Assembly (NCBI GenBank): GCA_013299115.1
Contig: JAAFKA010000011.1
Coordinates: 62,001-126,000 of the forward strand
Reading direction: 5' to 3'
DNA length: 64,000 nucleotides
Source: Cytophagales bacterium
Lineage (GTDB): Bacteria > Bacteroidota > Bacteroidia > Cytophagales > Thermoflexibacteraceae
A program made the position numbers and the translations under genes. This document shows, one piece after another, positions 10,937 through 59,600 of this stretch (positions are counted from its first letter, which is position 1; each line of letters starts with the position of its first letter). The notes beneath the pieces were generated by a model. The model ran no database searches. It saw only the letters and a list, made by a program, of their open reading frames with translations, and was not told the DNA's origin.

Positions 10937-11000
10937 TTTGATTAAATGTTTTTGTTAGTTTTGATAAAAAGTTTAAAAACAGCATAGCCCTAAATTGCTT

Positions 11001-11070
11001 AGAATGTAACATACGCTTTAGCGTGTGGTTGTTTGCATAAAATCACACGCTAAAGCGTATGTTACATTCT
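11001..11070. repeat. family A palindromes, head-to-head pair
   Basis: Perfect 27-bp inverted repeat, arms 11001-11027 and 11044-11070 separated by 16 bp. Each arm is itself a family A element (ACGCTTTAGCGT preceded by TGTAACAT). The arrangement resembles a BIME. It lies upstream of the TauE/SafE gene; a near-identical pair is at 34994-35060. Confidence 0.85.
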
Positions 11071-11159
11071 ACACAGCTTACAACAGCTATTAAAAATTAC
11101 AGTCCCAAGTTATGTTTTTTTTATAAATTTTCAAAAATTTTAAACAATTTTATTTTAAA

Positions 11160-14475: not shown

Positions 14476-14489
14476 AAAATATTTAGGTT

Positions 14490-14558
14490 GTTGTAAAAAA
14501 GATTTGCATAGATGACATCTTTCTGAAAGATGTCATCTATGCAAATCTTTTTTACAAC
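14490..14558. repeat. perfect 34-bp inverted repeat (family F)
   Basis: Arms 14490-14523 and 14525-14558 are exact reverse complements with a single T between them. The centre is GATGACATCTTTC/GAAAGATGTCATC and the outer part GTTGTAAAAAAG/CTTTTTTACAAC. It lies between the small ORF and the convergent TerC gene. The GATGACATC core recurs at 59297-59329 and in the dnaK terminator. Confidence 0.9.
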
Positions 14559-14572
14559 GAACTTATTTACAA

Positions 14573-15837: not shown

Positions 15838-16830
15838 ATGAAAAAAATATTAGTTATTCAAACTGCTTTTTTGGGTGATGTGGTGCTTGCAACGGCTGTT
15901 TTAGAAAAACTGCATCAGCATGACCCGCAAAGCCGTATAGATTACTTGGTGCGAAAAGGCAACGAAACTTTGTTGGCTGCCCACCCCTTTATTCATACTT
16001 TGTATGTTTGGAACAAACAACAAGCGAAGTATAAAAATTGGCTGGAAATATTGCAAAAAATTCGCAAAGAAAAGTATGAAGTAGTCATTAATTTACAAAG
16101 ATTTTTTTCAACGGGGTTATTGACTGCTTTGAGTGGGGCAGATAAAACCATTGGTTTTAAAAATAACCCGTTTGGCTCTTTTTTTTCCGAAACCTATCCC
16201 CACCACACCAACAAGGGACTACACGAAATTGAAAGAAATCAAAGCCTCATTGCAACGATTACAGATGCTATGCCTGCTTTGCCTCGTTTGTATCCTTCAA
16301 CGGCACAATGGAACAAGGTAAAAGCCTATAAATCAACGCCTTACTTTTGCATAGCCCCCACTTCGGTTTGGTTTACAAAGCAGTACCACATGGCAGGTTG
16401 GATAGATTTATTAGACCATTTGCCTACGCAACAGCCTGTTTATCTCTTAGGGGCAAAGGCAGACCAAGTGCTTTGCGAGCATATAAAAGCTGCAACCAAA
16501 CACCAAGCAACCGAAATTTTGTGTGGAAAATTAGACTTGTTGGAGTCGGCAGCACTGATGGCAGATGCCCAGCTAAACTATGTGAATGACTCTGCCCCAC
16601 TGCATTTGGCTTCGGCTGTTAATGCACCTGTTTGTGCTGTTTTTTGCTCGACTATTCCTGCTTTTGGATTTACACCTCTTTCTGCTTACTCTTTTGTGGT
16701 GCAAACTCCCAAAGATTTGCCTTGCCGTCCTTGTGGGCTGCACGGCTACAAGCAATGCCCCAAAGGGCATTTTGAATGTACCACCAGCATTGCTACTGAA
16801 CAATTAATTGCAGTAGTGTCGCAAAAGTAA
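15838..16830 (+). CDS. glycosyltransferase family 9 (ADP-heptose:LPS heptosyltransferase-like)
   Basis: 330 residues from the ATG at 15838 (MKKILVIQTAFLGDVVLATA); a longer frame to 15781 covers a hydrophobic but unlikely leader. GT9 features are the N-terminal FLGDVVLATAVLEKL loop and, in the C-terminal domain, the ADP-sugar site around YLLGAKAD and NDSAPLHLASAVNAP. The expected role is adding heptose or a related sugar to the lipopolysaccharide core at the inner membrane. No other LPS-core gene is adjacent. Confidence 0.9.
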   Translation: MKKILVIQTAFLGDVVLATAVLEKLHQHDPQSRIDYLVRKGNETLLAAHPFIHTLYVWNKQQAKYKNWLEILQKIRKEKYEVVINLQRFFSTGLLTALSGADKTIGFKNNPFGSFFSETYPHHTNKGLHEIERNQSLIATITDAMPALPRLYPSTAQWNKVKAYKSTPYFCIAPTSVWFTKQYHMAGWIDLLDHLPTQQPVYLLGAKADQVLCEHIKAATKHQATEILCGKLDLLESAALMADAQLNYVNDSAPLHLASAVNAPVCAVFCSTIPAFGFTPLSAYSFVVQTPKDLPCRPCGLHGYKQCPKGHFECTTSIATEQLIAVVSQK

Positions 16831-16831
16831 G

Positions 16832-16845
16832 ATTCATAAACTCTA
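16832..16845. repeat. fragment of a MITE end
   Basis: ATTCATAAACTCTA is identical to the right terminal inverted repeat of the element at 59259-59351. It directly follows the GT9 stop codon; the left end is not found here, so only a remnant is left. Confidence 0.45.
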
Positions 16846-16888
16846 ATAGTTTAAATTATTTTAAACTTTATGTAGCTCACTCAAATTT

Positions 16889-16913
16889 ATCCGACACCTT
16901 TGAGGTGTCGGAT
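16889..16913. repeat. family C palindrome / bidirectional terminator
   Basis: ATCCGACACCT (16889-16899) and AGGTGTCGGAT (16903-16913) pair perfectly around TTG between the convergent GT9 and fumC genes. The same sequence recurs inside the coding region of a SpoIIE phosphatase at 25371-25420. Confidence 0.85.
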
Positions 16914-16929
16914 AGTTACTTTCAGTTCC

Positions 16930-18324
16930 CTACCTCAAACTGCCAATCATATCCTCTGGTTTCACCCATTCGTCAAACTGCTCATTGGTAACATAGCCCA
17001 AACCAACAGCCGACTCACGCAGCGAAGTGCCTTCTTTGTGTGCTTTTTTGGCAATTTCGGCAGCTTTGTAGTAGCCAATGTGCGGGTTGAGGGCTGTTAC
17101 CAACATCAAAGAATTTTCTAAGTTCTTTTTCAACAAAGGCGTATTGGGTTCTATGCCTATTGCACAATGTTTTTCAAAAGAGTCGCAACCTTCGCCCAAC
17201 AATTTGGCAGCCATCAAGATATTGAAAATGATAACAGGCTTGAAAACATTGAGTTCAAAATGTCCGTTCATACCGCCAACAGCCACCGCCGCATCGCAGC
17301 CTATCACTTGTGCAGCCACCATAGTCAAGGCTTCGCACTGCGTAGGGTTTACTTTGCCCGGCATAATAGACGAGCCTGGTTCATTTTCAGGAATCAGAAT
17401 TTCGCCAATTCCACTTCTCGGACCCGAAGCCAACAACCGAATATCGTTAGCAATTTTCATTACCGCAACTGCCAACTGTTTGAAAGCACCCGATAAACCC
17501 ACTAAGGCATCGTGGCTTGCCAATGCCTCAAATTTGTTGGGGGCAGTGCGAAATTGATGTCCCGACAAAGCAGAAATATGTTTTGCAACTAAGGTATCAT
17601 AACCTTTTGGCGAATTTAAGCCTGTGCCAACCGCAGTTCCTCCCAAAGCCAATTCTGAAACGTGGTCAAGGGCAAATTCAATAGCTTTGATAGCATAATC
17701 TATCTGGGCAACGTAGCCCGAAAACTCCATGCCCAACGTGAGTGGCGTTGCGTCCATGAGGTGAGTACGCCCAATTTTGATAACGTCTTTGAAATCCTTA
17801 GCTTTTTTGTCTAAGGTATTTCGCAATTTTTTGACGTTGGGCAACATTTCACGCACCACAAAATCGTAGGCTGCAATGTGCATAGCAGTCGGGAAGGTGT
17901 CGTTTGACGATTGCGACTTGTTTACATCATCATTCGGGTTGAGTTTTTTCTTCTCGTCCATCAAATTGCCACCCAACAACACATGACCTCTGTAAGCAAT
18001 CACTTCGTTTGCATTCATATTGCTTTGTGTGCCTGAACCTGTCTGCCACACGACTAATGGAAATTCGTTGTCTAATTTGCCCGCCAAAATTTCATCGCAA
18101 ACCTGCCCAATGATGTCGGCTTTGTCTTTTGGCAATACGCCCAGTTCGCAGTTGGTAAGGGCAGCAGCTTTTTTGAGAATAGCAAAGGCACGAATGACCT
18201 CTATCGGCATTCGGTGTCCGCCAATGGTAAAGTTTTCCAAAGACCGTTGGGTTTGCGCACCCCAATATTTGTCGGCAGGTACTTTTACCTCGCCCATCGT
18301 GTCTTTTTCTATGCGGTAGTTCAT
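16930..18324 (-). CDS. fumC: class II fumarate hydratase
   Basis: Cytosolic, cofactor-independent fumarase of the TCA cycle, interconverting fumarate and L-malate. It has 464 residues from the ATG at 18324 ([16 protein letters not shown]); the longer frame upstream is not needed. The superfamily signature [11 protein letters not shown] is at about 315-325, with [14 protein letters not shown] near 100 and [14 protein letters not shown] near 185, all intact. It is monocistronic here. The upstream gap to the divergent photolyase gene holds a partial family G repeat. Confidence 0.97.
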
Positions 18325-18439
18325 GGTTTTATTGAGTAATCTATTAAGTTTTTGGTATTTTGTAAAAGTAAACAAAGAAAATCAAATTGCAAAATGCAGT
18401 CGTAATTTTGAAATGCAATTTTATTTTTAGGAATTGTAC

Positions 18440-18490
18440 AGTTGTCAAGGTGCGAAAAGTACGGGGTTGCCCAAATTATTGCCAACTTAC
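18440..18490. repeat. partial copy of the family G element
   Basis: TTGTCAAGGT, AAAAGTA, GGGTTG and ATTGCCAAC occur here in the same order and nearly the same spacing as in 44855-44905. It covers only the right half of that element and lies in the gap upstream of the photolyase gene. Confidence 0.6.
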
Positions 18491-18558
18491 AAATGTGGAA
18501 TTGCTTTGCAACAATTCTTTTAATCACTCTGTTCATATTTTGTACATTAAACCAAGTT

Positions 18559-19884
18559 ATGGAAAAAATAATTGTGTGGTTTACAAACGACCTGCGGTTG
18601 CACGACCACGAAGCCCTCTGGCGGGCTACCCAAAAAAATGCAATGGTAATACCTGTCTATTGTTTTGACGAAAGACATTTTGCTCCGATAAAGTTAGGGT
18701 TCAGAAAAACGGGAATTTTCAGAGCAAAATTTTTATTGGAGGCTGTTGCCAATTTGCAAAAAAATTTACAAAAAATTGGTAGCAATTTGGTTATTTTGAA
18801 AGGCAAACCAGAGGTACAAATAGCAGCCCTTGCCCAGCAAATAGGAGTTAAGGCTGTTTTTGGTAGCAAAGAGGTCTGTGCAGAAGAAACAGCCGTAGAG
18901 CAAGAATTAGAAATCAAATTGCGGACTGTGGGCATAGAATTAAACTTGTTTTGGCAAGCTACTCTTTTGCACCTCGAAGATTTGCCTTTTCCTTTGCAAA
19001 AATTGCCTGATGTGTTTACAGATTTTCGCAAAAATTGTGAAAAAATTGTAAAAATTAGACCTACTTTCAAAAATCCAAATAAATTGCTTGATTTTCAGGC
19101 TTTTAGCCAGCTTTACCCCGCCTTAAATTTGCCTACTACTTTGCCTACTTTGCAAGAATTAGGTTTTGCTACTACTTTGCCCATGCAAGATAGTAGGGCA
19201 GTTTTGGATTTTGAAGGTGGTGAAACAACTGGTTTGCAACGGTTGCAGCATTATTTTTGGGATACAGACCAACTAAAAGTGTATAAAGAAACTCGCAATG
19301 GGCTGATAGGTGCAGATTATTCTTCCAAATTTTCGGCTTGGTTGGCTTTGGGCTGCTTGTCGCCACGCAAAATTTATGAGGAAATAGCGGATTATGAGCA
19401 AAAAAGAGTGCAAAACGACTCTACCTATTGGCTGTTTTTTGAGTTGCTTTGGCGAGATTATTTTAGGTTGGTTGCCAAAAAATATGGTAACAAGTTATTT
19501 GCCTTGTCGGGATTAAAAGGCAGCCGACAAGCACTGCAAAACCGAACAGACCAAGCTGTTTTTGAGCAGTGGATTCAGGGGAAAACGGGTTTGCCTTTTA
19601 TAGATGCCAACATGAAAGAGTTGCAAGCAACAGGTTTTCTATCTAACAGAGGCAGACAAAACGTAGCAAGTTATTTGGTAAAAGACCTACATATTCATTG
19701 GCAGTGGGGGGCTTCTTACTTCGAGTCGCAACTGATAGACTATGATGTGTGCAGCAACTGGGGAAATTGGAACTACATAGCAGGTGTGGGCAATGACCCC
19801 AGAGAAAACCGTTATTTTAACATAGCCACCCAAGCCAAAAAATATGATGAAAAAGGAGAATATGTGCGGTTGTGGGTAGGTTAA
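18559..19884 (+). CDS. DASH-family cryptochrome / photolyase
   Basis: 441 residues from the ATG at 18559 (MEKIIVWFTNDLRLHDHEAL); a longer frame from 18442 runs through a repeat and is rejected. The N-terminal alpha/beta photolyase domain is followed by the FAD-binding helical domain with TGLPFIDANMKELQATGF, LSNRGRQNVASYLVKDL and NWGNWNYIAGVGNDPRENR, which is typical of CRY-DASH. These repair cyclobutane pyrimidine dimers, preferentially in single-stranded DNA. The protein stops at EYVRLWVG, where relatives continue with a WLPEL-type segment and some 40-60 more residues, so the C-terminus looks shortened. Confidence 0.9.
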   Translation: MEKIIVWFTNDLRLHDHEALWRATQKNAMVIPVYCFDERHFAPIKLGFRKTGIFRAKFLLEAVANLQKNLQKIGSNLVILKGKPEVQIAALAQQIGVKAVFGSKEVCAEETAVEQELEIKLRTVGIELNLFWQATLLHLEDLPFPLQKLPDVFTDFRKNCEKIVKIRPTFKNPNKLLDFQAFSQLYPALNLPTTLPTLQELGFATTLPMQDSRAVLDFEGGETTGLQRLQHYFWDTDQLKVYKETRNGLIGADYSSKFSAWLALGCLSPRKIYEEIADYEQKRVQNDSTYWLFFELLWRDYFRLVAKKYGNKLFALSGLKGSRQALQNRTDQAVFEQWIQGKTGLPFIDANMKELQATGFLSNRGRQNVASYLVKDLHIHWQWGASYFESQLIDYDVCSNWGNWNYIAGVGNDPRENRYFNIATQAKKYDEKGEYVRLWVG

Positions 19885-19958
19885 AATTATCACTTTCTGA
19901 TGTATATCTTGCTAAACTTACTTTATACTAAAAAAATTCATTAAAAAAACAAATACAG

Positions 19959-19989
19959 TTTTGTAAAAGTAGATACTTTGTTTATTTTG
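19959..19989 (+). promoter_or_regulatory. possible promoter for nuoL
   Basis: TTTTG at 19959-19963 is followed about 18-19 nt later by TTATTTTG (19982-19989), which resembles the -33 TTTG/-7 TAnnTTTG pair with one mismatch. It lies 65 bp before the nuoL ATG. Confidence 0.3.
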
Positions 19990-20053
19990 CAACAATTTTG
20001 AAGTCTTGTATTCACCATAAAACACCAATATTGTTTTTTACTACTCAAATGCT

Positions 20054-21982
20054 ATGCAACTGACCTTACTTTGTGCCTTAGTGCCTTTGTTTCCATTTAT
20101 TGGATTTTTAGTAAACGGATTAGGTTTTCGCAACATTCCGAACAGTGCAGCAGGAGTCATTAGCACTGCCTCTGCCGTTGCGTCTTTTGTGGTTTCTGTT
20201 TTGCTCTTTTCCAATTTCCTTAGTGGCGGTAGCCAACCTTTTACAGCCGTCTTGTTCGACTGGGTATCGGTTGGAGGATTGAAAATCCAATTTTCTTACC
20301 TCATAGACCAACTTTCGTTGCTGATGCTCATGGTCGTAACAGGGGTAGGCTCGTTGATTCACCTCTATTCTATGGGCTATATGCACCACGACGAAGGATT
20401 TGGAAAGTTCATGGCATTCCTCAACCTTTTTATGTTTTCTATGCTTCTGTTGGTCATGGGGTCAAACTATTTGATTATGTTCTTCGGTTGGGAGGGCGTA
20501 GGTTTGTGTTCTTATCTGCTCATTGGTTTCTGGAACAAAAACGTAAGCTACGGCGATGCAGCCCGCAAAGCCTTTGTGATGAACCGCATAGGAGATTTAG
20601 GTTTTTTAATTGGTATTTTCCTCATTATCAACACCTTTGGTAGTGTAGAATATCAACAAGTTTTTCCAAAAGCCGTAGAATTGTTTAAAGCTGGCGACAG
20701 CACTGTGTTTTGGATAACTTTCTGCTTGTTTATAGGGGCAATGGGAAAATCAGCTCAAATACCTCTTTACACTTGGTTGCCCGATGCTATGGCGGGACCT
20801 ACACCTGTTTCTGCCCTTATTCACGCAGCCACTATGGTTACAGCAGGTATTTATATGGTCATTCGTTCTAATGTTTTATACACCTTAGCACCCGATACGT
20901 TGGAAATCATAGCTATTGTAGGTTTGGCAACGGCTTTGTTTGCTGCCTCCATTGGTCTGTTCCAAAACGACATCAAAAAAGTATTGGCATACTCCACAGT
21001 AAGCCAATTAGGTTATATGTTTTTGGCTTTGGGCGTCATGGCATACAGTTCGGCTATGTTTCACGTGATGACACACGCATTTTTCAAGGCTTTGCTCTTT
21101 TTGGGTGCTGGCTCGGTTATTCACGCCATGGGTGGCGAACAAGACATACGCAAAATGGGTGGCTTGCAAGGACATATCAAAATCACTTTCCTCACTTTCT
21201 TGATAGGTACGATTGCCATTTCAGGTATTCCGCCTTTTGCTGGTTTCTTCTCCAAAGACGAAATCTTAATGCACGTCTATGAACATAACAAACTCTTGTG
21301 GGCTTTGGGCGTTGTGGGTTCTATGATGACTTCGTTTTATATGTTTCGTTTGTTGTTCCTCACTTTCTTTGGTACATTCAGAGGGACTAAACACCAACAC
21401 GAACACCTACACGAGTCGCCATTGTCTATGACTGTTCCGTTAATGGTTTTGGCTGTTTTGTCTGTTTTTGGCGGTGCATTGGGTTTGCCCGAAGTCTTTG
21501 GGTTTAACCACCAATTAGCCAACTTCATGAGTCCTTTGTTCGAACATTCTAAAACTGTCAATGCCTTAGTAGGGGCAAAATCTGCCTTGCCGCATAGTAC
21601 AGAATATGCCTTAATGTTCGTATCTGTTATGGCAGTAGCTTTGTCTATGACCGCAGCGTGGGTTTTATTTGTGAAAAAAGCCAACGTGCCAGCTTCAGAC
21701 GAAACCCTCGATGGCATGACCAAAGTAATTTACAATAAATACTATGTAGATGAAATCTACCAAGCAGCTATTGTGAAACCTTTGTATAGTCTTTCTGAAT
21801 TTTGCCACAGCGTAGCCGAAACAGCTATGGATATGTTGGTAGAAAGCACAGGCAAATTGGTTAATGTAGCAGGCAATGGTTTCAGGCAACTGCAAACAGG
21901 CATAGTAGGTTATTATGTGCTGGCAATGGTAGCAGGTATTTTGTTGTTTGCTGTTTTCACTTTGAGAAGTGTATTGTTTTAG
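20054..21982 (+). CDS. nuoL: NADH-quinone oxidoreductase subunit L
   Basis: Proton-pumping antiporter-like membrane subunit of respiratory complex I. It has 642 residues, full length, with about 15 membrane helices. Conserved segments include GWEGVGLCSYLLIGFW, the Lys-bearing MGKSAQIPLYTWLPDAMAGPTPVSALIHAATMVTAG and FKALLFLGAGSVIHAMGGEQD, and the long C-terminal part (YNKYYVDEIYQAAIVKPLY) that separates NuoL from NuoM, NuoN and the shorter DabB-type proteins. No nuoK precedes it and no nuoM/nuoN follows, so it stands alone between a photolyase and an acyl-amide synthetase gene. Confidence 0.95.
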   Translation: MQLTLLCALVPLFPFIGFLVNGLGFRNIPNSAAGVISTASAVASFVVSVLLFSNFLSGGSQPFTAVLFDWVSVGGLKIQFSYLIDQLSLLMLMVVTGVGSLIHLYSMGYMHHDEGFGKFMAFLNLFMFSMLLLVMGSNYLIMFFGWEGVGLCSYLLIGFWNKNVSYGDAARKAFVMNRIGDLGFLIGIFLIINTFGSVEYQQVFPKAVELFKAGDSTVFWITFCLFIGAMGKSAQIPLYTWLPDAMAGPTPVSALIHAATMVTAGIYMVIRSNVLYTLAPDTLEIIAIVGLATALFAASIGLFQNDIKKVLAYSTVSQLGYMFLALGVMAYSSAMFHVMTHAFFKALLFLGAGSVIHAMGGEQDIRKMGGLQGHIKITFLTFLIGTIAISGIPPFAGFFSKDEILMHVYEHNKLLWALGVVGSMMTSFYMFRLLFLTFFGTFRGTKHQHEHLHESPLSMTVPLMVLAVLSVFGGALGLPEVFGFNHQLANFMSPLFEHSKTVNALVGAKSALPHSTEYALMFVSVMAVALSMTAAWVLFVKKANVPASDETLDGMTKVIYNKYYVDEIYQAAIVKPLYSLSEFCHSVAETAMDMLVESTGKLVNVAGNGFRQLQTGIVGYYVLAMVAGILLFAVFTLRSVLF

Positions 21983-22072
21983 GCTGATTTATAGTTTTTT
22001 TGGTAAAACAACTTGTTTGCAAAATACTTTGCAAACAAGTTGTATTCGTATTAAGTTTGCAAAAAAACAATA

Positions 22073-23617
22073 ATGAACCTACTCAACACCATAGCCAAAG
22101 CTGTTTTTCGCCAACGCATAGCCCAAATAGACCATTTTAGGCTTTTTCCGCATGAGGTACAAGACCAAACTTTTCAGGCTCTGATTCGCCAAGCCCAAGC
22201 AACAGAGTGGGGCAGAAAATACGACTACGCCAGCATCAAAAACCCCGACAAGTTCAGAGAAAGAGTGCCTATTTCTACCTACGAAGACCTGTTTCCGTAC
22301 ATAGAAAGAATGATGTGCGGCGAGCAAAATGTGCTGTGGAGTAGCCCTGTGCAGTGGTTTTCTAAGTCTTCTGGCACTACCAATGCCCGCAGCAAATTCA
22401 TTCCTGTATCAAAAGAATCTTTGACAAATTGCAACTTCAAAGGTGGCAAAGACATGATAGCCCTCTACGTGGACAACTACCCCGCCACCAAAGTTTTTGC
22501 AGGCAAAAGCCTGTCTATTGGCGGTAGTTTGCAAACCAACCACCTCAATAGCCAAACAAAATACGGTGATGTGTCGGCTGTAATTATGCAAAACTTGCCG
22601 TTTTGGGCAGAATATTTGCGGACTCCGAGCCTGAAAACAGCCCTAATGGACAAATGGGAAGACAAATTGGAGGCTATGGCAAGAGAAACGATGCGGGTAA
22701 ACGTAACCAGCATGGCAGGTGTGCCTACGTGGACTGTGGTGCTGATAAAAAAAATAGTAGAACTATCGGGCAAGCCACACATTGGCGAAGTTTGGAAAAA
22801 TTTGGAGGTTTTTTTTCATGGGGCAGTTTCGTTTACGCCTTATCGGGAGTTGTTTAAAAATTTGATACCCAAAGACACGATGAATTATTTGGAAATTTAC
22901 AATGCTTCCGAAGGTTTTTTTGGTATTCAAGACCAGCGAAACAGCGAAGAAATGCTGCTCATGTTAGACTATGGCGTATATTATGAGTTGCTACCAATAG
23001 ACCAAATAGACCAGCCCAACCCCAAAGCAATAGGTTTAGAACAAGCCGAAATAGGCAAAAACTATGCGTTGTTGCTCTCCTCCAATGCAGGACTTTGGCG
23101 TTATCTCATTGGCGACACCATACGTTTTACTTCTACCAAGCCTTATCGTATCAAAATTTCGGGCCGTACCAAACATTTTATCAATGCCTTTGGCGAGGAA
23201 GTGGTCGTAGAAAATGCAGAAGCTGCCCTTGCCAAAGCCTGTGCTGCCACCGCAGCCCGACTCGCCAATTTTACGGTTGCACCCGTTTACCTGCAAGCCA
23301 ACGCCAACGGCTACACGCAAGGCGGACACGAATGGATTATAGAATTTGACCAAACTCCCGACAACATGCAGCAATTTGTAGAGATTTTGGATAATACCTT
23401 ACGCCAAATCAATTCGGATTATGATGCCAAAAGACACCAAAACATTGCCTTAGTTGCCCCAAAACTGCACATAGCCCCACAAGGCACTTTTTACGAATGG
23501 CTAAAAAGCAAAAATAAATTGGGTGGACAAAACAAAGTGCCTCGCCTCTCCAATACCAGAGAATATGTAGAGGAAATTTTGAAGATAATGGGTCTTAAAA
23601 TGCACAAGTTACATTAA
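22073..23617 (+). CDS. GH3 auxin-responsive-type acyl-acid-amido synthetase
   Basis: 514 residues of the GH3 (plant auxin-responsive) family of adenylating enzymes, which activate a carboxylate with ATP and couple it to an amine. Adenylation motifs: QWFSKSSGTTNARSKFIPVS (P-loop-like, about 95-114), YNASEGFFGIQD (acyl-binding/adenylate motif) and the C-terminal hinge around ISGRTKHFINAFGEEVVVENAE. Bacterial members are common in Bacteroidota, but their substrates are unknown. The next glycosyltransferase gene begins 11 bp after the stop, so they form an operon. Confidence 0.92.
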   Translation: MNLLNTIAKAVFRQRIAQIDHFRLFPHEVQDQTFQALIRQAQATEWGRKYDYASIKNPDKFRERVPISTYEDLFPYIERMMCGEQNVLWSSPVQWFSKSSGTTNARSKFIPVSKESLTNCNFKGGKDMIALYVDNYPATKVFAGKSLSIGGSLQTNHLNSQTKYGDVSAVIMQNLPFWAEYLRTPSLKTALMDKWEDKLEAMARETMRVNVTSMAGVPTWTVVLIKKIVELSGKPHIGEVWKNLEVFFHGAVSFTPYRELFKNLIPKDTMNYLEIYNASEGFFGIQDQRNSEEMLLMLDYGVYYELLPIDQIDQPNPKAIGLEQAEIGKNYALLLSSNAGLWRYLIGDTIRFTSTKPYRIKISGRTKHFINAFGEEVVVENAEAALAKACAATAARLANFTVAPVYLQANANGYTQGGHEWIIEFDQTPDNMQQFVEILDNTLRQINSDYDAKRHQNIALVAPKLHIAPQGTFYEWLKSKNKLGGQNKVPRLSNTREYVEEILKIMGLKMHKLH

Positions 23618-23628
23618 GTTACAATCTC

Positions 23629-24816
23629 ATGAAAATCTTACAAATTACACCTTCTTACAAACCTGCCTACGTGTATGGTGGCACTACGGTATCTGTTAGC
23701 CAACTTTGTGAGGCGTTGGTGGGCATGGGCAACGAGGTTACAGTATTGACTACGACTGCCAATGGTACAACGGAATTGCCCTTGCATGACCAGCAACCAA
23801 CTATAGTAGAAGGTGTAAAAGTTTATTATTTTAGTCGCTATACAAAAGACCATACTCATTTTTCCCCTGCTTTGCTTTGGTTTCTTTTTCGCCATCTTCG
23901 TCAATATGATATAATACACATTCAGTCGTGGTGGAATTTGGTAGCAGTTTTTGCCGTTGCAGTGTGTGCTTTGCGTGGTATAAAACCTATTTTGTCACCA
24001 CGGGGTATGCTCAGTGCTTATAGTTTTGTTTATGAAAATTCTCTCAAAAAACGACTTATTCATTGGCTTTTGGGCAAAAAATTGCTTTCCAAAACTATTT
24101 TGCATGCAACAGCCACCGCAGAATTAGCAGAAGCAAAACAACTTATTCCCGATTGGCAGGGATTTGTTTTGCCCAATATTTTGCCTTTGCCTACTGTTGT
24201 AACTTTACCTCTTACCCTACCTTACTCGAAACAAAAAACTTTTCGATTGTTGTTTTTGTCGAGAATAGACCACAAAAAAGGATTGGAGTTGTTTTTTGAA
24301 GTATTGGCAGCAACTAAAGAAAAATTAGCAAGCCAACAAATTGACATTCAACTACTTATTATTGGCGGTGGTGAACAAACTTATATTCAATCACTCAAAA
24401 AGTTGGTTAAGGATTTGTATTTAACAGACCAAATTCATTGGTTAGGCAGAGTCGATGGAGAACAGAAATATGGTTATTACGCCCAGGCAGATGTTTTTGT
24501 GTTGCCTTCTTATAACGAAAACTTTGCGAATGTAGTCTTAGAGTCCTTGTCACAAGGGACAGCAGTTTGGCTTTCGTCTTTTGTGGGCTTGGCAGCTTAT
24601 GTACAACAACACAATTTAGGTGTTGTAACCGACTTAGAAAAAACTGCTATGCAAGAAAGTCTTTTGAAATTACTACTTGACGAAACCCAAAGGCAAAAAA
24701 TAAGAAACACAGCCCCCCAACAAATTGCAAAAGATTTTGACCAACACCATTTGACAACGCAATATTTAGAGCAATATGAACATTTTAATCTTGTAATACC
24801 TCGCTATGAAGGGTAA
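23629..24816 (+). CDS. glycosyltransferase family 4 protein
   Basis: 395 residues starting MKILQITPSYKPAYVYGGTT. GT-B fold: the N-terminal acceptor domain with the Gly-Gly loop (YVYGGTTVSVSQLC), and a C-terminal nucleotide-sugar domain with RLLFLSRIDHKKGLELFFE, VDGEQKYGYYAQADVFVLPS and the EX7E-containing YNENFANVVLESLSQGTAVW. A retaining glycosyltransferase for a surface glycan is the likely role; donor and acceptor are not identifiable. It is co-transcribed with the upstream GH3-type synthetase. Confidence 0.92.
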   Translation: MKILQITPSYKPAYVYGGTTVSVSQLCEALVGMGNEVTVLTTTANGTTELPLHDQQPTIVEGVKVYYFSRYTKDHTHFSPALLWFLFRHLRQYDIIHIQSWWNLVAVFAVAVCALRGIKPILSPRGMLSAYSFVYENSLKKRLIHWLLGKKLLSKTILHATATAELAEAKQLIPDWQGFVLPNILPLPTVVTLPLTLPYSKQKTFRLLFLSRIDHKKGLELFFEVLAATKEKLASQQIDIQLLIIGGGEQTYIQSLKKLVKDLYLTDQIHWLGRVDGEQKYGYYAQADVFVLPSYNENFANVVLESLSQGTAVWLSSFVGLAAYVQQHNLGVVTDLEKTAMQESLLKLLLDETQRQKIRNTAPQQIAKDFDQHHLTTQYLEQYEHFNLVIPRYEG

Positions 24817-24922
24817 GTCATTTTATAATAGGCATTGCTCAGTCTTGTAAGCAAAAGAAAATGATAAATAAAACCATAAATACAGCTTAGGGTTGTATGA
24901 CGATTTTTTTTTGTAATCTCAC

Positions 24923-26962
24923 TCACAACCGTACTCCCATCACCAACACATCATCTACCTGCTTGTGTTTGCCTTTCCAATCCCTAAAAGTTTGTTCCAG
25001 CACTTGTTTCTGTTCGGCAAGTGGCTGTTGGTGTAGGTCAAAAAGCAATTTTTTGAATTTACGCACCATAAACTTGCTTTCTTTTTCGCCACCAAATTGG
25101 TCTTGATAGCCATCGGAGCAAAGGTAAAACCAAATACTTTCATCTGCTGCTTTTTTGGTTAAATCAAAGGTATGTTTTTCAAAAACTCTGCTTTTGCTAT
25201 CTTCGGAGTGTCCGCCAATGGGGTGCTTGGTGGCTTTTATGTCAAAGAAGTCTGCGTTTTCGGTGCTTAGGGTAGGGTTTTGTCGCAAATAGTCGGGCAA
25301 AATTTCGCTGTTTTTGGCTGTTACCAAATACAGTGGGTTCATTGCTCCTGCGTATTCCAGCAAACTCCATTTATCCGACACCTTTTGATTTTCATCAGAC
25401 ACCTCGAAGGTGTCCGACAAATCTTTCTGTTGCTTAGTCAAAACCACAATGGCAATGTCCATTCCGTCTTTATTGTTGCTCTGCTCTTGTTTGAGAGCAT
25501 ACAAAATTCCTTTGTGCAGAGCCTCCAAAATCGTGTCGGGGCTTGTGATGTGGTACATATTCACGATTTGGTTCAACAATTCATTGCCTATCATGCTCAT
25601 AAAAGCCCCAGGCACGCCATGCCCTGTGCAGTCGGCAGCCACTATAATCACTTTATTGTCTTGGGCAAGTTGAGTGGTTTCTTGGATAGAATAACTACCA
25701 ATGCTGGTCTCTTGAAACCAATAAAAATCTCCGCTTACTATATCACGAGGTTGGTAAAACACAAAAAAGTCTTGCAGAGATTTGCTAATTCTCTCCTCAA
25801 AAGGCAACATGGCAGTCTGTATCCGTTGGGCGTAGGTGATGCTTGCTGTGATGTCTTCGTGTTGTTTTTCTATTTCTCTTTTTTGGAAATTTGCCAAATC
25901 TAAGGTGCTGTTTAGTTCCTCGTTCATGGTTTTGATTTCCTCGTTAATTTGCAACATTTTCTCACTTTTTTCCAATATCTGTTCTTTTTGTGCAGCTATT
26001 TCTTCGTTTTTGGCTTGCAATAATAAATTAGCTTTTTGTTTGTTTTTGTTTTGCCAATAAAGCAAACCTGCCAAAATGAACACAGCACACAGTCCGCCTG
26101 CCAAAGAAAAAGCTATTATCTTTTGGAGTTTGGCTTCTTCGGCTTGCAATAGTCTTTCTTGGTGGAGGTTGCGTATTTGGTTTTCGCTAAGCAATTTGTC
26201 TTTGTTTAGCAATTCTAAATTAGTGTTTTGAATAGCCTTGTCTTTGTTGAGCAGGTCTATTTGTTGTTCTTTTTTCTCATTTTCTATTCTTTGCACTAAT
26301 TGCTGTTGGGAAAGTAACTGCAATTCTTTATTTTTGATAGCCTGCAAATTGGTAAGCAACAAAACTGCCTGTTTTTGCTTTTCGTTTTCGACACTTTGCA
26401 AGTCTTTATCTTTTTGGAGTAACAAAATTTCCTTTTGTTTTTTATCTATTTCATAATTGTATTCTAAAGAGGCTATTCGTTTTTGGTTGTCCTCGTTAAA
26501 AAGGCTGTCTTTATACACCATATATTCACTGAGGGCTGTATGGGCTTTATCAAATTCTTTTTGTTCGGCATAAACCTCTGCCAAGTTCAACAAGGAATTT
26601 TTAACTGTAACTTTTCGCCCTATATTTTTTGCTAAACCAATACTTGTTTCAAAACAAATAACGGCACTGTCATATCGTTTACCTCTGCTATAAAATTCGC
26701 CTATATCTCCCCATAAAATACTCTGCCCTATTTTGTCTTTAGTTTCTTTTTTTAATTTCATACTTTGACTATAATAATACAAAGCCTTAGTAGGTTGTGC
26801 AAGGTGACTATAGGCAACTCCCATATTAGTATAAATTATCGAGTTTTGCTTTTTATCTTTCACTTGGATAGCCATAGGCAGGGCTTTTTCATAATAAATT
26901 AGGGCTTTTTCGTAATCCTTCACTTTGGAATAATATACACCTAATCCCATAATACTAAACAT
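24923..26962 (-). CDS. TPR / SpoIIE-type PP2C phosphatase, C-terminal part of a frameshifted gene
   Basis: 679 residues from an internal ATG. TPR motifs (about 1-150) are followed by a long Gln/Lys-rich coiled coil, one membrane helix (IIAFSLAGGLCAVFILAGLLYW), a second coiled coil and a SpoIIE/PP2C domain with metal-binding Asps in DIVSGDFYWF, VAADCTGHGVPGAFMSMIGN and FYLCSDGYQDQFGG. Such proteins are membrane-anchored Ser/Thr phosphatases that read a periplasmic TPR sensor and act on anti-sigma-antagonist-type partners. The real N-terminus is the frame at 26995-27717, separated by a -1 shift at an A8 run. A family C palindrome adds about 17 residues (DLSDTFEVSDENQKVSDKW) inside the phosphatase domain. 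Confidence 0.85.
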   Translation of the reverse strand: MFSIMGLGVYYSKVKDYEKALIYYEKALPMAIQVKDKKQNSIIYTNMGVAYSHLAQPTKALYYYSQSMKLKKETKDKIGQSILWGDIGEFYSRGKRYDSAVICFETSIGLAKNIGRKVTVKNSLLNLAEVYAEQKEFDKAHTALSEYMVYKDSLFNEDNQKRIASLEYNYEIDKKQKEILLLQKDKDLQSVENEKQKQAVLLLTNLQAIKNKELQLLSQQQLVQRIENEKKEQQIDLLNKDKAIQNTNLELLNKDKLLSENQIRNLHQERLLQAEEAKLQKIIAFSLAGGLCAVFILAGLLYWQNKNKQKANLLLQAKNEEIAAQKEQILEKSEKMLQINEEIKTMNEELNSTLDLANFQKREIEKQHEDITASITYAQRIQTAMLPFEERISKSLQDFFVFYQPRDIVSGDFYWFQETSIGSYSIQETTQLAQDNKVIIVAADCTGHGVPGAFMSMIGNELLNQIVNMYHITSPDTILEALHKGILYALKQEQSNNKDGMDIAIVVLTKQQKDLSDTFEVSDENQKVSDKWSLLEYAGAMNPLYLVTAKNSEILPDYLRQNPTLSTENADFFDIKATKHPIGGHSEDSKSRVFEKHTFDLTKKAADESIWFYLCSDGYQDQFGGEKESKFMVRKFKKLLFDLHQQPLAEQKQVLEQTFRDWKGKHKQVDDVLVMGVRL
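25371..25420. repeat. family C palindrome inside the SpoIIE phosphatase coding sequence
   Basis: TTATCCGACACCTTTTGAT is followed by GACACCT-CGA-AGGTGTC; on the minus strand one half reads AAAGGTGTCGGATAAAT, identical over 17 nt to the intergenic copy at 16889-16913. It keeps the reading frame and encodes SDTFEVSDENQKVSDK at a loop before the EYAGA strand. Confidence 0.75.
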
Positions 26963-26994
26963 ACTACCCGATATATCATCAGTTTCTCTAAGTG

Positions 26995-27717
26995 CTAATG
27001 ATTTTTTTTGTACTCCAACTCTTTTTTCAAATCATTCTGGTCTGAATAAACAATAGCCAAAGTTAAATAGGAAGAGGCAAGCCCTTTTGTATCTTTTAAT
27101 TCCTCCTTTATTTGTATAGACTGTAGTAAATTTTCTATGGCTTTGTCATAATTACTTTGTATGGTATATACTCTTGCAAGATTAGCACTGACTGTTCCAT
27201 AAGTAACTTTATGTGCAGGATTGGTTTTATCTAAAAGTTCTTTGGCTTGGGTAAGGGTTTGCATAGCAAGGGGCATGGCAGCCATGTCATAGTAGGTATT
27301 GCCTAAACCCTGATAAGCAAAAGCTATGTCTTTGTTGTCTGCATATTTTTTGCGGAGGGCTATGGCTTTTTGGTAATAAAAGATAGCTGAATCAAAAACA
27401 TTAGCACTTTTGTAGTAAGCAGCCAAATCTATGAGGGCAAGAGCCAAACCCGTATCAAATTTAATTTTTTCTGCCAATAGCCTTGCTTGGGTAGCAGCCA
27501 AAGGAATGGAATCTGTCTGTTGGTTGTTTTTGTAATTTTTAGACAATTCGTTCAATAGTTTTACTTTTGTGCTATCCATTTTTTGGGCGTAAAAACTCCG
27601 CCACAAACTATCTGTTTTAGGCTTTTGGGCAAAACCTATTGCGGGTGAGAAAATGACAAATAAAAAATAAATAAAACTAATGGCATGGCAAATTATTTTA
27701 TTGCAAATTTGTAGCAT
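26995..27717 (-). CDS. TPR sensor, N-terminal part of the frameshifted SpoIIE phosphatase gene
   Basis: 240 residues: signal peptide/anchor (about 8-31, ending GFAQ) then TPR repeats (FDSAIFYYQKAIALRKKYA, AYQGLGNTYYDMAAM, YDKAIENLLQSIQIKEELKD). It ends KKELEYKKNH at a stop codon just after an A8 run. Reading one base back at that run continues into KKSLALRETDDISGS and then the TPR frame of the downstream ORF, so the intact protein would have about 930 residues. The initiating ATG lies within a family A palindrome (27710-27734); no other in-frame ATG precedes the signal peptide. Confidence 0.8.
   Translation of the reverse strand: MLQICNKIICHAISFIYFLFVIFSPAIGFAQKPKTDSLWRSFYAQKMDSTKVKLLNELSKNYKNNQQTDSIPLAATQARLLAEKIKFDTGLALALIDLAAYYKSANVFDSAIFYYQKAIALRKKYADNKDIAFAYQGLGNTYYDMAAMPLAMQTLTQAKELLDKTNPAHKVTYGTVSANLARVYTIQSNYDKAIENLLQSIQIKEELKDTKGLASSYLTLAIVYSDQNDLKKELEYKKNH
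27002..27009 (-). other. homopolymer (A8 in the mRNA) frameshift site
   Basis: Eight T on the plus strand. The mRNA reads TAC AAA AAA AAT CAT TAG; a -1 shift (or one extra A) joins the two TPR frames. It may be a sequencing error, a slipped-strand phase switch, or transcriptional or ribosomal slippage on A-rich sequence. Confidence 0.7.
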
Positions 27718-28579: not shown

Positions 28580-30769
28580 TTACAACTGAATCCCTATCAC
28601 CAAAATATCATCTCTTTGCACTGTATTTTTTGCGTGTTGGTTGTAGGCTTCCAAAATACTCCATTGCTGTTCTGTGCCTTCGTCTTTTTCTCTGGCGAGG
28701 GTTTCGAGCAGTTTTTGTAGTTTTTTCTTGCCAAACCGAATACGTTGCGTGTCGTTTTGGTCTATGAACCCATCACTGCTTAGGTACAGCCACGAGTTTT
28801 TTGGTATTTCTACGATTTGGTTGTGAAAAGCATCGAATTTTTTGCTTTGCAAGCCGCCAATTCCTCTGCGGTCGCCAGTCAATACCATAAATTGTTGGAG
28901 GTTATTGTCAAAAATCCACACATCATTTTTTGCCCCTGCAAAAGTCAATTTTTTGCTTTCAATTTCGCCTTCACTTTTTTGGCAATTTTCTATCATTACC
29001 ACCGCCGCGTCCACGCCATTGTCGTCGCCTGTTTCCTCTTGTCTAAGCAGGCGTTGAATAGCTTTGTTGAGATTTTCGAGGAGTTCGGCGGGGCTTTCAA
29101 ATTTGAGAAATAAGATAAACCTGTCGAGCAAACCATTGACTATCATGGTCATAAACGCAGCAGGTACGCCATGTCCTGTGCAGTCTAAAACAGCTAAGAC
29201 TAATCTTTTATCAGGAGTTTCGTTAAACCAATAAAAATCTCCGCTTACAATATCTTTGGGTTTGTAGATAATAAAATGGTCGGCAAACAGTCTTTTGGCT
29301 CTGTTTCGAGAAGGCAAAATAGCTTGCTGAATTTGCAAAGCCGCCGAAATACTTTGCGAAAATTTATAGTTTCTTTCGTGTAGTTCTACATTTTGCTCTG
29401 AAATTAAGGCTTGTTGTGTGCTGATTTCGTTCTTTTGTTGTTGCAAATCTTTGTTTTGCAATAAAATTTCCTCTTTTCGTTTCCTTATTTCTTCGTTTTG
29501 AAATTGCAACAGTGTATTGAATTTTTGAATTTTCCTAAAATTCCTATAAAACAGCAGGGCAAAGACCAACAGGACAAAAAAACTGCCTACCACAAAGTTT
29601 CGCACCAAGACATCGTTTTTATGCTGGATTTTTAGGCTGTTAATTTGTACTTGTTTGTTGTCGAGTTCATAAGCAGATTTGGCAAATATATTTTTGCGAA
29701 TGACCTCTGAAGAATAAATAGAATCTTTCAGTTCTGCATATTTTTTCTGAAATTCGTAGGCTTTGCTTAGGTTGTTTTCGGCTTCATAGACTTTTGCCCT
29801 GCCTCTGTAACTTTCACTCAAAAAGGATTTTGCCCCTGTTTCTGTGGCGTATAATTCGGCTTTTTCGTAAAATTTAAGTGCATTTTTGGTATTGCCCTGT
29901 GCCAAATGAATATCGCCAATGGCGTTTGCAGATTCGGCGATTTGGTATTTGTTTTTGCTCCTTTCAAAAGCCTCTATACTTCTAAAAAGATATTCATTTG
30001 CTTGCTCATATTGTTTGGTGGCTGCATAAGTTTGCCCTATGTAGAGCAAAGTTCTGCCTGTGGGCAATTCTAAGGAGTCTGCCAACAAAACAGATTTAAA
30101 AAAATAATCTAAGGCTCTGTCGTAGTGCTGTTGTTTGAGGTAAGCAGCTCCTATGTTGGTGTAAATCAACTCAATACGCCAACGGTCGTTGATTCTTTGG
30201 CTGATTCCCAATGCTTTGAAATAGTACTCTAAGGCATCGTCTATGTCGTTTTGTTGGTAGTAGGTTAGGGCAATATTGGAAAGAGAAACTGCAATTTTTT
30301 CGTCTAATTTCAGCTTTTCGTGTATTTTCAAGGATTTCAAATGATAAGCCATTGCCTCCAAATAATTGCCTTGCTGCCCATTGACTAAACCCAAGGTAAT
30401 ATAAGTGCTGGCAATACCTTCTGGGTCGTTGAGTTTTGAAAAAATGCTAAGGGCTTCGGTCAAATAATTGAGGGCTTGCACAAATTCACCTTTTTGTCTG
30501 AAATACAAGCCAATATTTTTATAGGTTTCAGCAGTGCCACGTTTAAAATTTAGTTTTTCAGCCAAATACAGAGCTTCATCTGCATAATCTTTGCTTTTTT
30601 CAGGGTTTTTGGAATAGAGAGCAAAAGAAAGTTGATTCAATAGGTGTACCCTCTGCGTGTCGGGTGAGGCAAGCACTAATTGTTTTTCGAGGCTGTCTAT
30701 TTTGTTTTGTTGGGCAAAAACAGGCAACGAAAGTAAATAAAAGAAAGCAAAAAAATGAAGAAGTTTCAT
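28580..30769 (-). CDS. TPR / SpoIIE-type PP2C phosphatase (intact paralogue)
   Basis: 729 residues, the intact relative of the split gene at 24923-27717. Signal peptide (MKLLHFFAFFYLLSLPVFAQ), about eight TPR repeats (about 45-360, for example NIALTYYQQNDIDDALEYYFKAL and NIGAAYLKQQHYDRALDYFF), a membrane helix (VRNFVVGSFFVLLVFALLFY), a coiled coil, and a SpoIIE phosphatase domain with DIVSGDFYWF, VLDCTGHGVPAAFMTMIVN and YLSSDGFIDQND supplying the metal-binding Asps. The periplasmic TPR sensor probably controls the cytosolic phosphatase. The family C insert of the other copy is absent here. Confidence 0.92.
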   Translation of the reverse strand: MKLLHFFAFFYLLSLPVFAQQNKIDSLEKQLVLASPDTQRVHLLNQLSFALYSKNPEKSKDYADEALYLAEKLNFKRGTAETYKNIGLYFRQKGEFVQALNYLTEALSIFSKLNDPEGIASTYITLGLVNGQQGNYLEAMAYHLKSLKIHEKLKLDEKIAVSLSNIALTYYQQNDIDDALEYYFKALGISQRINDRWRIELIYTNIGAAYLKQQHYDRALDYFFKSVLLADSLELPTGRTLLYIGQTYAATKQYEQANEYLFRSIEAFERSKNKYQIAESANAIGDIHLAQGNTKNALKFYEKAELYATETGAKSFLSESYRGRAKVYEAENNLSKAYEFQKKYAELKDSIYSSEVIRKNIFAKSAYELDNKQVQINSLKIQHKNDVLVRNFVVGSFFVLLVFALLFYRNFRKIQKFNTLLQFQNEEIRKRKEEILLQNKDLQQQKNEISTQQALISEQNVELHERNYKFSQSISAALQIQQAILPSRNRAKRLFADHFIIYKPKDIVSGDFYWFNETPDKRLVLAVLDCTGHGVPAAFMTMIVNGLLDRFILFLKFESPAELLENLNKAIQRLLRQEETGDDNGVDAAVVMIENCQKSEGEIESKKLTFAGAKNDVWIFDNNLQQFMVLTGDRRGIGGLQSKKFDAFHNQIVEIPKNSWLYLSSDGFIDQNDTQRIRFGKKKLQKLLETLAREKDEGTEQQWSILEAYNQHAKNTVQRDDILVIGIQL

Positions 30770-34993: not shown

Positions 34994-35060
34994 GAATGTA
35001 ACATACGCTTTAGCGTGTGATGTTTACATACCATCACACGCTAAAGCGTATGTTACATTT
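34994..35060. repeat. family A palindromes, head-to-head pair
   Basis: Arms 34995-35022 and 35032-35059 are a perfect 28-bp inverted repeat with a 9-bp spacer. Each arm contains ACGCTTTAGCGT with the TGTAACAT foot, almost identical to the pair at 11001-11070. It begins 14 bp after the L25 stop. Confidence 0.88.
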
Positions 35061-59199: not shown

Positions 59200-59600
59200 T
59201 TGTAAGGAAATAACTACGTTACATTTCAAACTTGATTCCAAGTTTTTATATAAACCAATAGAGTTTATGAATAAATTTTTGTTATGAGGTTTGAAAAAAG
59301 ATGTCATTTTTTTGAAAAATGACATCTTTCGAAAATTATTCATAAACTCTAATAATGAACTAATGATTACATTTATTGAGCAATTTTTACACTTTTTCAT
59401 TTGCAATATTTTTAGCAGCCCTGCCTTGCTTTTTTGTCATTTTCGCCCACTTTTTCGCCACTTTTCTGCCAAAAATCAACCCTACTCCCTGTCATTTTGT
59501 CATAATCATAGCTATTTTTTTGTTTAGGCACAAGGCTTGTTAAAATACATACTAAAATTAGTTTTTCTTTTGTAACAAAACAAAATAGATATACTCAATC
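59200..59600. other. 401-bp intergenic region upstream of dnaK
   Basis: It holds the MITE-like element at 59259-59351 and otherwise T-rich DNA. The dnaK promoter should be here; no CIRCE-type inverted repeat or clear TAnnTTTG was recognised. Confidence 0.55.
59259..59351. mobile_element. MITE-like element with 16-bp TIRs and internal hairpin
   Basis: TAGAGTTTATGAATAA (59259-59274) and TTATTCATAAACTCTA (59336-59351) are perfect terminal inverted repeats with TA ends. Inside, AAAGATGTCATTTTT (59297-59311) pairs with 59315-59329 around TTG, carrying the family F core. It is related to the element at 35068-35185. Confidence 0.7.

What the first reader, a model, noticed from the sequence alone, without database searches (positions are those of the whole stretch)
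25371..25420. Intergenic palindrome family C also sits in frame inside a phosphatase gene
The element between fumC and the GT9 gene (16889-16913) shares a 17-nt exact match with a stretch coding SDTFEVSDENQKVSDK in the SpoIIE domain at 24923-26962. The intact paralogue (28580-30769) lacks these residues. This parallels the Rickettsia palindromic elements, which insert into genes and become translated.
Basis: partly seen in the sequence, partly recalled or inferred. Interest (0 to 1): 0.6.

Follow-up and report, generated by a model that had tools for sequence, protein, structure and literature searches.

The report
Translated palindromic repeat inside bacterial genes
A short hairpin-forming DNA repeat scattered through this Cytophagales genome also sits inside a number of unrelated genes, where it is read as a small extra protein loop and its two arms change together, mostly at silent codon positions.

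Summary
A palindrome, core ATTTATCNGACACCTNNNAGGTGTCNGATAAAT, is dispersed in this 5.5 Mb Cytophagales genome (82 perfect stems, control 1). There are two forms. One is a 106-bp MITE-like element with inverted ends, none of 41 copies inside an ORF of 90 aa or more; the copy at 16889-16913 is a decayed one. The other is a short hairpin. Short hairpins lie deep inside 14 ORFs, 12 with Pfam domains, mostly unrelated; 13 of the 14 use one frame (LSDTxxVSDK). In the window's SpoIIE phosphatase the insert (25370-25420) is missing from 29 of 29 aligned homologues and falls in a loop of a confident model. Two other inserts are likewise missing from relatives. A close paralogue has the insert in another form. 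The Rickettsia-like reading is supported as an analogy; membership is not claimed. Unexpected: in short copies the five most variable stem pairs of 15 are the third-codon-position pairs, with compensatory changes; copies outside ORFs and in five other genomes vary mainly at the same sites. How it moves was not found.

The parts
25370..25420 (-). Translated palindromic insert LSDTFEVSDENQKVSDK in the SpoIIE phosphatase domain
25395..25417 (.). Complete short hairpin (TC-N-GACACCT-NNN-AGGTGTC-N-GA type), codes SDTFEVSD on the minus strand
25369..25385 (.). Single arm of a second hairpin, codes KVSDK on the minus strand; the paralogue at G000:C27:50734 has both arms here
24923..26962 (-). Host ORF: TPR plus SpoIIE (PP2C-like) phosphatase, 679 aa; matches the 3' part of an ORF that is continuous in the C74 paralogue
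26995..27717 (-). Upstream TPR ORF (240 aa) matching the preceding part of the C74 paralogue
16857..16927 (.). Decayed copy of the long (106-bp, MITE-like) form between two convergent genes; hairpin at 16889-16913

Best explanation
The stretch is a copy of a dispersed, non-autonomous palindromic DNA element that inserted into a SpoIIE-type phosphatase gene and is tolerated because the palindrome is open in the host's frame and adds a hydrophilic loop. SHOWN: the repeat family; two forms; in-frame copies in 14 ORFs of mostly unrelated families; absence of three tested inserts from relatives; the loop position in SpoIIE (model); preference for one frame; compensatory change between arms. INFERRED: that copies arise by transposition (a hairpin mobilised in trans by a transposase not identified here); that the window copy lost one arm after gene duplication; that the ORFs are expressed and the host proteins work. 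The favoured frame is the one in which third codon positions pair with third codon positions, so arms can change together without changing the peptide, and both strands encode nearly the same peptide.
For: 82 perfect hairpins against 1 control. 24 copies at least 40 aa from both ends of ORFs of at least 200 aa, in 14 ORFs (six of these ORFs run off the fetched stretch); 20 of 24 copies and 13 of 14 ORFs in frame SDTxxVSD. The window and C27 genes are paralogues, so 12 of 13 if counted as one event; with two equally likely open frames P is about 0.002 (own arithmetic). 12 of 14 hosts have Pfam matches: SpoIIE (4), beta-lactamase, Roc-COR-TIR, histidine kinase, NFACT, regulator propeller, PG_1098/THUMP-like, small methyltransferase, DUF4011/AAA. 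Insert absent in 29 of 29 aligned SpoIIE homologues from other genomes, in 18 of 18 NFACT rows, and in 18 of 19 PG_1098 rows, the 19th being a wrong ORF. A solved methyltransferase (7wm6) lacks the insert of C73:58774-59556. The 91%-identical SpoIIE domain at C27 has two hairpins at the same site with near-identical flanks. The model puts the insert (domain residues 130-146) between strands 115-125 and 147-156; the fold matches the SiaA PP2C domain 6k4e, and the sequence match to 6k4e stops at 131 and resumes at 226.
Against: No transposase with matching ends was found; the three Y1 transposase genes have no hairpin in the 4-5.5 kb taken around them. No empty site was seen in a close strain: the only genus-mate held is 52-60% identical in the tested NFACT protein, so exact boundaries and target duplication are unknown. 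The host ORF in the window may itself be broken upstream. The inserted stretch in PG_1098 is about 32 aa, longer than the hairpin. One array (C18) and some other-genome copies (L172; L304 and L305, in ORFs of 162 and 167 aa) use the other open frame.
Confidence: 0.88

Rival explanations
1. The hairpin is first of all a recognition site (for a transposase, a nucleoid protein or an RNA). The fixed bases are contacts, every third base is free, and translation in genes is a by-product.
For: 19 hand-sorted copies outside any listed ORF vary mainly at the same sites (top four of 15 pair-sites all third-position, the fifth such site invariant). So do 23 distinct copies from five other genomes (top three of the eight pair-sites that the search pattern left free). 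Compensatory cells are not rarer outside genes: 13 in 22 internal copies, 27 in 35 others, each set counted against its own commonest pair.
Against: A recognition model does not predict that the free positions coincide with the third positions of the frame used in 13 of 14 ORFs, nor loops free of stops on both strands, though the loop bias could be structural.
Confidence: 0.2
2. The intergenic hairpins are bidirectional transcription terminators and the coding resemblance is chance.
For: The 16887-16915 stem-loop scores as terminator-like on the + strand (1 found, 0.4 expected) and lies between convergent genes.
Against: Neighbours of 41 long copies: 11 divergent, 23 tandem, 7 convergent. Of 43 short copies not in the 24 internal ones: 4 divergent, 18 tandem, 9 convergent, 11 inside a predicted ORF, 1 at an edge. 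14 ORFs with deep in-frame copies.
Confidence: 0.04
3. SDTxxVSD is ancestral protein sequence shared by homologous domains.
For: Four hosts are SpoIIE paralogues. One hit in another genome (L301, KFDKDTYKVSGG) is the ordinary GyrB motif (recognised from memory), so chance protein matches do happen.
Against: Hosts are otherwise unrelated families; inserts are absent from relatives; copies also lie outside genes.
Confidence: 0.02
4. The palindromes arise in place by template switching or slippage rather than by moving.
For: Tandem arrays exist (four 48-nt units at C18:49540-49706; two neighbouring units at C73:148936-148997). Arms stay matched.
Against: The same core occurs at scores of unlinked sites, which in-place formation cannot create.
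Confidence: 0.05

Closest known systems
Rickettsia palindromic elements (RPE), Ogata et al. 2000, 2002 (seen through passages of PMC2229807 and PMC3733652; originals not read)
   Same: Palindromic repeat found between genes and fused in frame in many protein genes.
   Different: Described at 105-146 bp in Rickettsia (PMC2229807), although PMC3733652 equates RPE-4 and RPE-6 with short CGTC repeats; here the in-gene unit is a 23-33 nt hairpin, in Bacteroidota. PMC6649704 (passages) says Rickettsia palindromes lose arm identity over time; here arms keep matching through compensatory change.
REP elements (GTAG and CGTC families), some inside ORFs (PMC3733652, passages and section 15)
   Same: 20-40 bp palindromes, single or double, some inside ORFs; CGTC type also reported in Bacteroidetes.
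   Different: No GTAG or CGTC tag at an end of the consensus seen here (by reading); no hairpin near the Y1 genes.
Intragenic enterobacterial RU elements with open frames (PMC2759123, search listing and start of abstract only)
   Same: Small mobile repeats with open reading frames found inside genes.
   Different: 103-168 bp units in enterobacteria; sequence not compared.
MITEs
   Same: The long form: 106 bp, terminal inverted repeats, no room for a transposase gene.
   Different: The short in-gene hairpin lacks those ends.
Coding palindromes of nematomorph mitochondria (PMC6649704, passages)
   Same: Translated palindromes with concerted arms; that paper defines phase 3 as third positions pairing with third positions.
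   Different: There phase 3 declines with repeat length and the palindromes are in mitochondrial genes; here a dispersed family is mostly read in phase 3.
PARCELs (PMC2996958, abstract and section list)
   Same: DNA with dyad symmetry coding repeated peptides.
   Different: 25-residue amphipathic tandem domains; here 8-17 residues, mostly single or double insertions.

Membership tests
Rickettsia palindromic elements | palindromic, dispersed between genes and in frame inside unrelated genes | tested here: met
Rickettsia palindromic elements | length 105-146 bp (PMC2229807) | tested here: inconclusive
   in-gene unit is a 23-33 nt hairpin, single or double; but PMC3733652 (section 15) equates RPE-4 and RPE-6 with short CGTC repeats, so length alone does not decide
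Rickettsia palindromic elements | sequence homology to an RPE family | not tested
   no RPE sequence was fetched; so not filed as a member
REP (GTAG/CGTC) | GTAG or CGTC tetranucleotide at one end | tested here: not met
   consensus of short copies, by reading
REP (GTAG/CGTC) | repeats flanking a Y1 transposase gene | tested here: not met
   three Y1_Tnp genes; no stem with up to 3 mismatches in 5501, 5001 and 4001 bases around them
MITE (long form only) | terminal inverted repeats and fixed short length | tested here: met
   TAAGTAGTTRRACYTAA ends; 40 of 47 end-pair rows exactly 106 bp
MITE (long form only) | target-site duplication | tested here: inconclusive
   no duplication longer than a possible TA noticed in the 12-base flanks printed
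MITE (long form only) | autonomous relative with the same ends | tested here: inconclusive
   end pairs were sought up to 400 bp apart only; orphan ends were listed but not examined for a transposase gene; draft assembly
PARCEL | 25-residue amphipathic tandem repeat | tested here: not met
   8-17 residue inserts

The most novel reading that the evidence does not exclude
A mobile peptide-coding palindrome under double constraint: it evolves as a translated sequence (changes mostly at third positions of LSDTxxVSDK or VSDTxxVSDT) and as a hairpin (silent changes matched in the other arm), even in copies outside genes, in two groups of Bacteroidota (Cytophagales and Saprospiraceae). Either copies cycle through genes, where the peptide is selected, or an unknown machine reads this hairpin in triplets.
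Probability: 0.35. Interest if true: 0.8.

Novelty: new variant of a known kind. Interest (0 to 1): 0.6.

Why it matters
Palindromic elements that enter genes and become protein are, as far as the papers seen here go, known mainly from Rickettsia, Wolbachia (a reference title in PMC2229807), enterobacteria and some REP-rich bacteria. This is an example in Cytophagales and Saprospiraceae with a short defined core, one dominant frame, and arms that change together at silent positions. That makes two questions testable: whether genes gain peptide loops by transposition, and whether the peptide, the hairpin or both are selected. My searches found no description of it in Bacteroidota (open-licence papers only, by those terms).

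Tried and rejected
Terminator reading: no excess of convergent neighbours among long copies. Link to Y1 transposases: none seen. Known RNA family: no match in window 16600-26000. An idea that the hairpin usually sits inside larger palindromes: only 8 of 64 flank pairs exceed the 95% point of the shuffles, three of them neighbouring hairpins; a search for AGACTTTTTGC-type outer arms in 370 kb gave 7 sites. One search printed nothing because the pattern held IUPAC letters; redone. The PDB match of the NFACT host starts after the insert and says nothing about it; the listed PDB matches of the beta-lactamase host do not cover its insert. L301 was set aside as the ordinary GyrB motif, but it is still among the 23 and 30 copies counted.

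Limits of the counts. Copies were found by patterns that fix GACACC/GGTGTC or by BLAST, so variation at those stem sites is underestimated. One search listed only the first 100 of its 164 rows (to contig C34); for later contigs I relied, so the copy set may be incomplete. Five of the 108 hairpins had another loop length and were left out. Five long-like copies were removed by hand from the 64 short ones, leaving 59 (57 distinct). The split into 24 internal (by script), 16 ambiguous and 19 non-ORF copies was finished by hand. Copies are related and shuffles ignore that. The long form shows almost no covariation: its hairpins are nearly uniform. Pfam was run on 16 proteins in all.

Full report
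WHAT WAS CLAIMED.

CHECK. The match is exact and 17 nt long. Alone it is marginal (E = 0.087 in this genome), but the family is unmistakable: 99 matches of CCGACACCTN{0,12}AGGTGTC against 0 for the reversed pattern, and 82 places of GACACCN{2,9}GGTGTC against 1. I took the surroundings of the places listed (one search listed 100 of 164 rows) and found 108 hairpins with up to five mismatches, 103 of them with the 3-nt loop. As single-stranded DNA the intergenic copy folds with z = -9.5 and the coding stretch with z = -3.7; in the latter the best fold pairs an arm of the full hairpin with the lone arm.

TWO FORMS. Aligning the copies by orientation separates a long and a short form. The long form is 106 bp with inverted ends TAAGTAGTTRRACYTAA (40 of 47 end-pair rows are exactly 106 bp), with the hairpin near one end; none of 41 such copies lies inside an ORF of at least 90 aa. 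The window copy at 16857-16927 is a decayed long form (85% identical to C73:40777-40849, which lies in a 106-bp copy). The short form is the hairpin with some conserved flanking A/T, and is the one found inside genes.

IN GENES. 24 short copies lie at least 40 residues from both ends of ORFs of at least 200 aa, in 14 ORFs, six of which run off the fetched stretch. Twelve have Pfam matches, mostly of unrelated families. 20 of 24 copies and 13 of 14 ORFs use the frame giving (L)SDTxxVSD(K); the exception is a four-unit array at C18:49540-49706 in a second open frame. The third frame is closed by a stop where the flank reads GATAA, as in most copies (by reading). By the same length rule, copies in other genomes give five in this frame (L171, L178 twice, L196, from two Saprospiraceae genomes; L313) and one in the second frame (L172); two more in the second frame lie in shorter ORFs (L304, L305). 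L301 was set aside as the ordinary GyrB motif (recognised from memory).

INSERTION, NOT ANCESTRY. In the window's SpoIIE domain the SDT..VSD insert is absent from all 29 homologues aligned from other genomes, from the C74 paralogue and from the paralogue at 28580-30769. The 29 are the loci returned for 51 other genomes with a match, and some have a loop a few residues longer than others, without this motif. It is present in the close paralogue at C27 and in the more distant C34 paralogue in the same loop; a further paralogue (C3:41953) has two copies in another loop. The C27 domain (91% identical) has two full hairpins where the window has one hairpin and one arm, with nearly identical flanks, so the site has changed since duplication. 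In NFACT all 18 relatives lack the inserted stretch; in PG_1098 18 of 19 lack it and the 19th row was a wrong ORF. A methyltransferase insert is missing from the solved structure 7wm6. A model of the SpoIIE domain (mean pLDDT 90.8) puts the insert in a loop between two strands, with block means of 58 and 74; the fold matches 6k4e.

CAVEAT ON THE HOST. The ORF 24923-26962 and the ORF 26995-27717 match consecutive parts (344-978 and 104-327) of the 978-residue ORF at C74, in different frames. The gene is thus frameshifted in this assembly, really or by error, so this particular host may be decaying.

UNEXPECTED PATTERN. Among 57 distinct short copies, 40 cells show two-sided compensatory change against a mean of 14.9 in 2000 shuffles (none reached it; shuffles ignore relatedness), and pairing drops from 90% to 20-33% when the arms are slid. 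The five most variable of 15 stem pairs are exactly the five pairs of third codon positions in the SDT frame (1 in 3003 by chance for that frame, 3 in 3003 for any frame). The pattern is not confined to genes. In 19 copies outside ORFs the top four pairs are third-position pairs and the fifth such pair does not vary; in 22 distinct internal copies likewise the top four, with another fifth invariant; in 23 distinct copies from five other genomes (G059, G060, G062, G063, of Saprospiraceae, and G064, an unnamed Bacteroidetes; one of the 23 is the GyrB motif) the top three of the eight pairs not fixed by the search pattern. Departures from consensus at first, second and third positions are 1/168, 3/168 and 41/192 in genes, and 2/133, 7/133 and 37/152 outside. 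Long copies show almost no such change. Loops are open on both strands more often than the 40% expected (22 of 24 in genes, where one strand is open by definition; 16 of 19 outside), although copies are related and the loop preference may be structural. This fits copies passing through genes, or a hairpin recognised by something that ignores every third base; I cannot separate the two.

DISTRIBUTION. In 59 genomes (own plus relatives) the CCG pattern occurs in five, all in the window's family. In 395 Bacteroidota genomes only the own genome (66 places) and one other (4) have the strict form. A scan of one genome per GTDB species found 41 stretches (records of the own genome may be left out): 38 in Bacteroidota MAGs (Cytophagales, Saprospiraceae, unnamed Bacteroidetes), and single hits in a Berkelbacteria, an Alphaproteobacteria and a Thermoflexales record that may be chance.

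MECHANISM. Most likely a non-autonomous palindromic element moves, probably as a hairpin and with a transposase supplied in trans, and copies that land in frame in surface loops survive. No transposase was tied to it. That step is inference.

COMPARISON. It works like the Rickettsia palindromic elements and intragenic REPs (passages of PMC2229807; section 15 and passages of PMC3733652). Lack of GTAG/CGTC tags and of hairpins near the Y1 genes argues against filing it as a REP; homology to RPEs was not tested. I call it a new variant of a known kind.

Noticed in passing
window 24923-27717: SpoIIE gene split into two ORFs in different frames relative to the continuous C74 paralogue, at an A-run; frameshift or assembly error.
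   Followed up: partly
window 10991-11080 and 34995-35059: Large palindromes sharing AACATACGCTTTAGCGTGTG; another palindromic family, also seen beside C11:76598.
   Followed up: no
window 14485-14563 and 59297-59329: Palindromes sharing AAAGATGTCAT; similar stretches lie near short hairpins at C4:82050 and C4:143108.
   Followed up: no
G000:C50:7506, C24:31226, C56:2390: Some intergenic short hairpins sit in the middle of larger inverted repeats (22 nt exact at C50), suggesting nested elements.
   Followed up: partly
G064 loci L302, L303, L304: The same hairpin core flanked by long locus-specific inverted arms, as if palindromes were extended in place or hairpins were targets.
   Followed up: no
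whole genome G000: 36 matches to the TPR-SpoIIE query (some may be TPR only); four SpoIIE hosts carry palindrome inserts.
   Followed up: partly
G000:C18:49540-49706: Four 48-nt units of the hairpin in tandem inside a DUF4011/AAA ORF, read in the second open frame.
   Followed up: no
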